From: Thermococcus onnurineus NA1
Lineage (GTDB): Archaea; Methanobacteriota_B; Thermococci; Thermococcales; Thermococcaceae
Direction: 5' to 3'
DNA length: 64,000 bases
Assembly: GCF_000018365.1 (NCBI RefSeq)
Contig: NC_011529.1
Span: forward strand, 1 to 64,000
Shown here: piece by piece, positions 11,512 through 23,875 of the stretch
Numbering within the stretch: position 1 is the first letter of the stretch
Layout of the letters: every line of letters starts with the position of its first letter
Position numbers and translations under genes: made by a program
The notes under the pieces: model-generated
What the model saw: only the letters and a program-made list of their open reading frames with translations
Told to the model about the DNA's origin: nothing
Databases searched by the model: none

Positions 11512-11579
11512 CCCTTTCCCAACCTTTTTAAAGGTGAAAGCTGGAGGTTTTTATGGTACAAGTTTTTGGAGGAGTCCGA

Positions 11580-11834
11580 ATGAAGGTTAAGGTTGAGGTT
11601 ACTTTTAGAATGGGCGGTGTTTCTTACCGCGGCCACAGATGGGAGGATGACGTTCTCGTCTTCGAGTTCGAGAGGCTGGGGGATGCCTTTATCCAGGTTC
11701 TAAGCAAAAGGGTTGTGGAGGAGGAAGTTGAGCGCGAGCCCGCTAAGGTCCTCGTGGAGCTCCGCACGAAGGACGGGGGCAAGGTCTTCGGCACCCTCAA
11801 GGAAGACGGCGTTTACAGGGCGATAGAGCCTTAG
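11580..11834 (+). CDS. Small conserved hypothetical protein
   Basis: 84 residues, charged, beta-alpha-beta-like, no recognised domain. Two in-frame ATGs exist. A TATA box (CCTTTTTAAAGG, 11523-11533) predicts a start site near 11553, and GGAGGAG at 11568-11574 lies five bases before the ATG at 11580, so 11580 is preferred over 11553. The stop overlaps by four bases (TTAG) the end of the degenerate convergent gene. Function unknown. Confidence 0.6.
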   Translation: MKVKVEVTFRMGGVSYRGHRWEDDVLVFEFERLGDAFIQVLSKRVVEEEVEREPAKVLVELRTKDGGKVFGTLKEDGVYRAIEP

Positions 11835-12394
11835 CGCTTTCTCGCGAGTGCAGGTGTCAGTGCTATCAGTATCAACAGGCTAGGACCGCAGATGTTTTCT
11901 TCGTCATTTCTCGTTTCCTTCTTTGCTAGTGATGTCTCCTCTGGTGGCTCTATTGGGTCTAGTAAATTATCTTTCCATTACGCTTTATCGTTAGGCTGTA
12001 GATGCCTACTGGAACGTCTGTCTCGTTAAGGGGCGTTTCTCCGATAGGCTCTCCGTCGAGATAGACTTCCAGTCCCCTCTCCTTTGTCAGTATCCTGAGC
12101 TTGAAGGTTGGGTACTTCAGCGTGGCGTTAATCAGTTTTCTTTCCCCATCCCGCAGGGAGACGTTCAGGGAGTAGACGAGGTAGTCGGGGTTGTAGAGCT
12201 GGATAGTGTAGTTGCCCGGCGTGATGGTGAGGTTGAGGGGTGTCTCGCCAACGTTCTTTCCGTTGATGAAGACGTGGGCCTTTGGGGGTACTAACTACCA
12301 TAAGGTACGCCATTTGGTTCTCTGAAGTGGTGAGGATTGGTGGAGTTATAAGCAGCATCGCTAGGAGGGCAAGAAAAAGGGCATGACCCTTCAT
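11831..12394 (-). pseudogene. Frameshifted secreted PEGA-domain protein with CGP-CTERM tail
   Basis: Three consecutive frames on the minus strand join into one 187-residue protein if two single-base indels are corrected. Frame 1 gives a signal peptide (MKGHALFLALLAMLLITPP) up to STPK. One base too many in the C5 run (plus-strand G5 at 12284-12288) shifts to frame 2, which holds two PEGA-type repeats (HVFINGKNVGETPLNLT and EVYLDGEPIGETPLNET). One base too few in an A-run (plus T3 at 11972-11974) shifts to frame 3, which ends in an acidic linker and CGPSLLILIALTPALARKR, matching the Thermococcales CGP-CTERM sorting signal (TIGR04288, from memory). A TATA box (12414-12424) and GGAGG remain upstream. 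Either a young pseudogene or two sequencing errors. Confidence 0.8.
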
Positions 12395-12483
12395 TACTCC
12401 TTCCTCCAAGTTGCTTTATACCACTGACTATAATTAGGGTGAACGTTTTAAAGTTTGTCCCCCACCTACCTGCGGTGGTGCCC

Positions 12484-12699
12484 ATGTACATGGCGGAGTT
12501 CAAGCTTCGCTTTGGAGATAGGAAATGGTACGTCAGGAGGATAATCGAGGCTAACTCACTTGAAGAGGCCGAGGAGATGGCCGAGCGCTACGCCAGGGCC
12601 ATGAACAAAGGCGAAGTTCTCTGGGAGCTGAGCTACGTTATAGAGGCTGAGAGGCCGCTTCTCATAGGAAAGGAAGAGCTCGAGAAGCTTGGGGCTTGA
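12484..12699 (+). CDS. Small conserved hypothetical protein
   Basis: 71 residues: a beta hairpin (FKLRFGDRKWYVRR), a helix (SLEEAEEMAERYARAM) and a second beta segment. No family is recognised. The start is the ATG at 12484, preceded by GGTGG-N5; a TATA-like TTTTAAAG near 12444-12452 places transcription initiation just before the GGTGG. An upstream in-frame start at 12439 would precede this promoter and is rejected. It is divergent from the degenerate PEGA gene. Confidence 0.6.
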   Translation: MYMAEFKLRFGDRKWYVRRIIEANSLEEAEEMAERYARAMNKGEVLWELSYVIEAERPLLIGKEELEKLGA

Positions 12700-20919: not shown

Positions 20920-21003
20920 AGCCTTACTCACTATAATCTTTAGGCAATTTTTTACGACCGGAACGCTTAGTAGATTCATGACCAATCCCCAACGGGTGAG
21001 AGC

Positions 21004-21340
21004 TTGGTCTATTGGATTGTCCCTGCTGTATACACAGTTTTGATACTCTCTCCACTGGTCTGGTCATCTATTATGTCCAGTGGGCTCTACTGGTTCATCC
21101 ACAACATGTTCTCGAGACAGGAGGCTCTGACTGCCTTTGACCGGAGAACTGGAGGCACATAAGGAAAGCTGCATTCAAGCTGGCTTTCTCCTGCTTGCGG
21201 TAATATGGGCTCTTGCTAAGATTGACGAGCAGCTCGGAGCGTTCATCGGCTTTTTCCTAACGCTAATATACTCTGGCTCTTCAACGCGATTGTTTCGGAT
21301 GAAGTAGAAAAAGCGAGAAGAGAAAGAAAAGTGGCTGGAA
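21004..21340 (+). pseudogene. Decayed small membrane-protein gene
   Basis: The 430-base gap before iorA holds a broken plus-strand gene. GGTGAG at 20995 is followed by a TTG start and VYWIVPAVYTVLILSPLVW, then SGLYWFIHNMFSRQEALTAF. After a one-base shift near DRRTG the frame becomes GELEAHKESCIQAGFLLLAV then IWALAKIDEQLGAFIGFFLT; a second shift gives NILWLFNAIVSDEVEKARRE. Three hydrophobic segments would result, so the ancestor was a small polytopic membrane protein. The end runs into the 3' end of the convergent iorA. No homologue is recognised. Confidence 0.5.
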
Positions 21341-23341: not shown

Positions 23342-23613
23342 TCACTTTTCTCCTTTTTCCTCCTTTCCGTAGAATGCCCTGTTGGGTGTCCTAGTGAATG
23401 TATTGCTGATGCTCTGACGGCCGCTTGAGAAGGCAAAGATAGCGACACCCAGCAGGAATAGGAGGAGTATTACAATGGCCACTGAGGTGATGTCCGCCTT
23501 AAGGCCGATGGCCATCAAGACCACGGGTGCTCCGATTATTCCGATGACCACGAGGCCATAAAGACCATAAGGAGCTTATATCCATACCTCTCCATGAAGA
23601 GACCAAGATCCAT
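23342..23613 (-). pseudogene. Frameshifted paralogue of the neighbouring membrane protein
   Basis: Starts 11 bases after the next gene's stop with MDLGLFMERYGYKLL, almost identical to MDFDLFMERYGHKIL of the gene just upstream. The frame then shifts; adding one T at CTCCTTATGG restores YGLYGLVVIGIIGAPVVLMA, which aligns with FGIFGAVLLVIIGTLLASFY of the paralogue, followed by a second membrane segment and a basic tail to the stop at 23342. So this is a tandem duplicate of about 90 residues broken by one deletion, unless that base is a sequencing error. Confidence 0.7.
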
Positions 23614-23623
23614 CTTTCTTCCC

Positions 23624-23875
23624 CTAACGCTTCCTCCTGTCGTCGTAGAAGTACTTGGCGTGGGCCTGCGCCTGGGCGTCCATGACGCGTCTCTTTACTG
23701 TGAAGGCGTAGGTTATCAAAAACACGATTACCAGGCCAGCGGCAAAGTATCCAAGGAACCTGAACAGCAGGTAGAACGATGCCAGAAGGGTACCTATTAT
23801 TACAAGAAGCACAGCTCCAAAGATTCCGAACAGTATTTTATGCCCGTACCTCTCCATGAAGAGGTCGAAGTCCAT
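23624..23875 (-). CDS. Small membrane protein, first of a tandem pair
   Basis: 83 residues. A short amphipathic N-terminus (MDFDLFMERYGHK) precedes two hydrophobic helices (about 15-35 and 40-60) and a basic, Tyr-rich tail (KRRVMDAQAQAHAKYFYDDR). No family is recognised. Several in-frame ATGs exist upstream; 23875 is chosen because GGTGAG lies four bases before it and because the paralogous next gene begins with the same MD-LFMERYG. The TATA region 23931-23940 is shared with the divergent helical-protein gene. Confidence 0.55.
   Translation of the reverse strand: MDFDLFMERYGHKILFGIFGAVLLVIIGTLLASFYLLFRFLGYFAAGLVIVFLITYAFTVKRRVMDAQAQAHAKYFYDDRRKR

What the first reader, a model, noticed from the sequence alone, without database searches (positions are those of the whole stretch)
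11831..12394. Cryptic PEGA/CGP-CTERM surface protein hidden by two one-base frameshifts
Joining three minus-strand frames rebuilds a signal peptide, two PEGA repeats and a CGP-CTERM sorting tail. Standard gene calling would miss it. The indels are in short C and A runs. The order of parts matches Thermococcales surface proteins that are processed by an uncharacterised sorting system.
Basis: seen in the sequence. Interest (0 to 1): 0.55.

Follow-up and report, generated by a model that had tools for sequence, protein, structure and literature searches.

The report
Broken surface-protein gene in Thermococcus
This is the decayed remnant of a small predicted cell-surface protein gene in a heat-loving archaeon; a close relative keeps the gene whole, so it is an ordinary pseudogene and not a hidden or specially decoded gene.

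Summary
The three reading frames are real. They belong together as a signal peptide, two PEGA repeats and a CGP-CTERM tail. A close relative, G026, has the same gene at the same place as one intact 202-aa frame. Against it the window has two lesions. One is a surplus C in a C run near 12284. The best explanation is a pseudogene in Thermococcus onnurineus NA1. Programmed frameshifting and sequencing error cannot explain the 46-bp loss. The gene sits at a site that turns over in the genus: of 45 scored loci, 34 are empty, 7 hold a 753-813 aa PEGA/CGP-CTERM gene, 2 the short one and 2 an unrelated gene. The window copy is 1 of 10 CGP-CTERM hits in its genome. A second, at 906 kb, is also frameshifted, and a published one-base insertion in a CO-adapted strain would return its frame. 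That side observation is more interesting than the finding itself.

The parts
12282..12394 (-). frame A: predicted signal peptide and start of the mature protein (MKGHALFLALLAMLLITPP...)
   Evidence: same N-terminus in the intact G026 protein; no signal-peptide predictor was run
12274..12292 (-). lesion 1: one surplus C in a C run (5 C in window, 4 in G026)
11960..12285 (-). frame B: two PEGA repeats, closed by an in-frame TAG
11962..11963 (-). lesion 2: junction of a 46-bp deletion relative to G026 (15 codons plus one base)
11831..11965 (-). frame C: linker and CGP-CTERM tail (ENICGPSLLILIALTPALARKR), stop overlapping the stop of the convergent 93-aa ORF 11553-11834
12395..12465 (-). 5' region with TATA-like and Shine-Dalgarno-like sequence, nearly identical to G026
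   Evidence: motifs read by eye
11553..11834 (+). flank gene B (small protein, no Pfam or NCBIfam hit)
12439..12699 (+). flank gene A (small protein, no Pfam or NCBIfam hit), found in 58 of 61 genus genomes

Best explanation
It is a pseudogene of a small secreted and anchored surface protein (signal peptide, two PEGA repeats, short linker, CGP-CTERM tail). Shown: the sister genome G026 keeps an intact 202-codon gene at the same place, and the window copy carries a surplus C that throws translation off after about 37 codons and, downstream, a 46-bp deletion that removes 15 codons and shifts the frame again. Shown: in 34 of 45 scored loci the site is empty and in 7 it holds a longer PEGA/CGP-CTERM gene, so the gene is dispensable. 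Inferred: when intact, the protein was exported by Sec, the PEGA repeats formed a short extracellular stalk or binding module, and the CGP tail held it in the membrane or was exchanged for a lipid by an unknown enzyme. In the window strain only a short secreted nonsense peptide of about 88 aa could be made from the old start.
For: Intact orthologue, 91% DNA identity over the whole stretch and 96% protein identity over the PEGA part. Lesions defined by alignment and again by blastn. G000/G026 changes fit a formerly selected protein: 11 synonymous and 9 non-synonymous where neutrality expects about 15 of 20 non-synonymous (binomial P 0.004). dN/dS is 0.26 against 0.027 and 0.066 for neighbours C and A. 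Presence/absence is patchy: 10 state changes on a 36-genome tree of the flank proteins. The coordinates of a resequencing study of NA1 fit this genome, and its Table 1 of ten mutations lists none in the window.
Against: There is only one intact orthologue, so which side changed is inferred from its continuous frame. Neighbour B has a higher ratio (0.48, few sites), so relaxed selection in the gene itself is not shown. Promoter-like sequence is preserved, so transcription is possible. Lesion 1 alone could still be a sequencing error.
Confidence: 0.9

Rival explanations
1. The gene is whole in the living strain and the frameshifts are errors of the reference sequence.
For: Lesion 1 is a one-base difference in a C run. 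Other one-base differences occur in the window.
Against: Lesion 2 is a 46-bp loss, not a base-calling error. A resequencing study (Illumina and SMRT, about 100x each) whose coordinates fit this genome lists ten mutations, none here; it compared with the parental strain, so shared reference errors may have been filtered. The one-base loss near 23552 is shared with G016, so at least one comparable lesion is real.
Confidence: 0.04
2. Programmed frameshifting joins the three frames into one protein.
For: A C5 run before AAA could in principle allow a +1 slip (recalled; no call). Both frames show more synonymous change than neutrality predicts.
Against: The orthologue needs no frameshift. Two separate shifts would be needed, and the second sits at a deletion that removes 15 codons just after the second PEGA match.
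Confidence: 0.02
3. The gene is a switchable (phase-variable) surface gene, now off.
For: A second CGP-CTERM gene of the same genome is off by one missing G, and a published T insertion 8-9 bases on would return its frame. Five of 224 CGP tails in 21 genomes follow a frameshift.
Against: The window gene also carries a 46-bp deletion, which cannot revert by slippage. No long homopolymer or repeat tract is present.
Confidence: 0.04

Closest known systems
CGP-CTERM proteins of Thermococcales (TIGR04288)
   Same: C-terminal CGP motif, hydrophobic stretch and basic end, above the curated cut-off
   Different: the gene is broken; its score is the lowest of the 10 hits in its genome
PEGA-domain proteins (PF08308)
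   Same: two repeats, E 1.8e-22 in the intact orthologue
   Different: only two repeats in a 202-aa protein, where the other PEGA hits listed lie in frames of 440 to over 3000 codons
753-813 aa PEGA/CGP-CTERM genes at the same site in G002, G005, G031, G032, G045, G046, G048
   Same: same site, orientation and C-terminal arrangement; P0004 residues 29-202 align to the last ~190 residues of the G002 protein at 28% identity, E 4.7e-15
   Different: the short gene lacks the long N-terminal part; whether it is a deletion derivative is not shown

Membership tests
CGP-CTERM (TIGR04288) | match over the curated cut-off at the extreme C-terminus | tested here: met
   22.9 bits, cut-off 21, residues 25-44 of 44
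CGP-CTERM (TIGR04288) | N-terminal signal peptide on the same polypeptide | tested here: inconclusive
   hydrophobic N-terminus in the intact orthologue, judged by eye; in the window the two ends are in different frames
CGP-CTERM (TIGR04288) | processing by a sorting enzyme or lipid attachment at the Cys | not testable with these tools
   no experiment; PMC4870337 passages call the function speculative
PEGA (PF08308) | profile match over gathering score | tested here: met
   77.5 bits against 20.8, two stretches
pseudogene | disrupted relative to an intact orthologue at the same site | tested here: met
pseudogene | relaxed selection after the lesion | tested here: inconclusive
   dN/dS 0.26, but B has 0.48 and only one orthologue exists
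programmed frameshift gene | frameshift conserved in orthologues | tested here: not met
   the single orthologue is continuous
phase-variable gene | lesion reversible by slippage in a repeat tract | tested here: not met
   46-bp deletion without tract

The most novel reading that the evidence does not exclude
CGP-CTERM surface genes of Thermococcus are switched off and on by short indels. In several genomes the shift lies between the exported domain and the CGP tail, which would turn an anchored protein into a released one. In T. onnurineus NA1 two of ten CGP-CTERM loci carry frameshifts. The T insertion that others found at 906462 in a CO-adapted strain and listed as a frame shift in an 'aminotransferase' would instead return one of them to a full-length anchored protein.
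Probability: 0.12. Interest if true: 0.55.

Novelty: new member of a known kind. Interest (0 to 1): 0.2.

Why it matters
As a pseudogene it matters little beyond annotation. It shows that this intergenic site gains and loses PEGA/CGP-CTERM surface genes across the genus. It also led to a second broken CGP-CTERM gene whose frame may be returned by a mutation seen in laboratory evolution, which would give a testable handle on what these anchored proteins do.

Tried and rejected
One-base slip in an A run at 11960-11985: rejected, it is a 46-bp deletion. Programmed frameshifting: rejected. A scan of genome contigs with the intact protein for named relatives gave one weak hit in a Bacteroidaceae MAG and no useful relative. 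Descent of the short gene from the long genes at the same site: plausible, not shown. A single gain of the short gene in the G000/G026 lineage: the group has support of only 16 on the tree, so not decided. Alignment was made on the wrong strand and replaced. In one search loci L165, L166 and L169 were taken at the wrong end, so only G000 against G016, G035, G001 and G024 is readable there. The 2008 genome paper of NA1 is not held. Searches gave listings without direct bearing; one search gave passages without mention of this locus.

Full report
What is there. The window is bases 1-64000 of a single-contig genome of 1,847,607 bp. I recalled this size as Thermococcus onnurineus NA1. A published mutation table for that strain supports it: I looked up five of the ten entries of Table 1 of PMC4791640 as checks on the coordinates, and three give the reported parental residue (Thr55 at 1400830, Leu at 760634, Pro at 1420154), a fourth falls in an A run where an A deletion is reported (1527982), and the fifth (1422235, a reported T deletion) is a T. 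The minus strand between 12394 and 11831 reads in three frames a hydrophobic N-terminus, two PEGA repeats and a CGP-CTERM tail. PEGA and CGP_CTERM matches pass their curated cut-offs.

The intact orthologue. Of 61 genus genomes searched with the PEGA stretch, the window's own included, 44 have some PEGA match, but only G026 matches at 96% identity; the next best by E-value is 44% identical. The DNA search shows the same: G026 aligns over the whole 901-bp query, and no other genome besides the window's own does so. The G026 gene is one frame, 202 codons from its ATG. Alignment shows a surplus C in the window at 12284 and a 46-bp deletion at 11962. blastn over 31,292 aligned window bases lists 34 gaps in all. 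Many of those inside long ORFs come in neighbouring pairs that cancel, which I read as alignment slips. The two lesions here do not cancel in place, and 15 codons are gone.

Selection. Over 186 comparable codons G000 and G026 differ by 11 synonymous and 9 non-synonymous changes, dN/dS 0.26. This is fewer non-synonymous changes than neutrality expects (binomial P 0.004), so the composite frame was under selection for much of the divergence. Neighbours A and C have 0.066 and 0.027, but neighbour B has 0.48 on few sites, so relaxed selection in this gene is not demonstrated.

The site. Flank protein A was found in 58 of 61 genomes, and I fetched the stretch beside it in all 58. In 45 of 58 both flanks A and B lie in the fetched stretch; 13 of 58 were not scorable. 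Of the 45, 34 have a gap of 49-121 bp, 2 hold the short gene (G000, G026), 7 hold a 753-813 aa PEGA/CGP-CTERM frame and 2 a 444-aa frame without a CGP motif. On a tree of 36 genomes with all of A, B and C the states need 10 changes, about as many as shuffled labels (10.5), so occupancy is scattered over the tree. G016 and G028, next to G000 and G026 on that tree, are empty. In both short-gene genomes the gene's stop overlaps the convergent stop of B, and the 3' junctions of the long-gene genomes G031 and G045 look the same.

The family in this genome and genus. TIGR04288 matches in 61 of 61 genus genomes and in 0 of 14 control genomes. The window's genome has 10 hits, and the window copy is the weakest, 22.8 bits. 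In 21 genomes listed in full there are 224 hits, of which 8 lie in frames under 150 codons. These are the two in G000, and one each in G003, G006, G009, G010, G012 and G016. By eye five of the eight follow a frameshift (G000 twice, G003, G010, G012), one has an in-frame stop (G016) and two are unclear (G006, G009). Breaks further upstream would be missed, no background rate for other genes was measured, and sequencing error is not excluded for these genomes.

A second broken gene. The hit at 906585 belongs to a gene from 905572 whose first 294 codons are 97-98% identical to G016 and G026, where the frames are reported as 359 and 386 codons long. Here one G is missing relative to G016, with the tail in another frame. 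Table 1 of PMC4791640 (passages seen) lists a Sanger-checked T insertion at 906462 after the 32nd transfer on CO, labelled TON_0982, aminotransferase, frame shift. In this sequence 906462 lies 8-9 bases past the missing G, and one added base would return the frame of the CGP tail (frame arithmetic). The protein has only weak DUF4350 similarity, just under its cut-off, and nothing that supports aminotransferase in Pfam or NCBIfam. If instead the reference is wrong at the G, the T insertion would break an intact gene. The paper's passages do not decide this.

Literature. A search for CGP-CTERM found 1 paper, whose passages call the domain's function speculative. A search for PGF-CTERM, CGP motif and Thermococcales with at least two terms found none. 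I saw passages of PMC4870337, PMC5316973, PMC4791640 and PMC5522443, and search listings only for all others.

Verdict. Interest is low for the locus itself and moderate for the side observation.

Noticed in passing
G000:C1:905572-906653 (L162, L163, L185): A second CGP-CTERM gene of the same genome is broken by one missing G. A published T insertion at 906462 in CO-adapted strain 156T (PMC4791640 Table 1) would return its frame, the opposite of the 'frame shift' label there, if the reference is right.
   Followed up: partly
window 20954-21330 (+): G026 has a 128-codon frame of a small membrane-like protein here; the window shows five one-base losses across the stretch. The gene is missing from the G016, G028 and G018 matches.
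   Followed up: partly
window 23342-23680 (-): A small membrane-like gene, intact as a 112-codon frame in G026, has a one-base loss near 23552 that G016 shares, so it is not a sequencing error of this genome alone.
   Followed up: partly
window 11834-12439 and the same site in 45 loci: The site between flank genes B and A is empty in 34, holds PEGA/CGP-CTERM genes in 9 and a 444-aa exported-looking protein in 2.
   Followed up: partly
L189, L190, L192, L193: CGP-CTERM genes in G012, G003 and G010 have a frameshift upstream of the tail, in G012 and G003 in the linker just before it; one in G016 has an in-frame stop.
   Followed up: no
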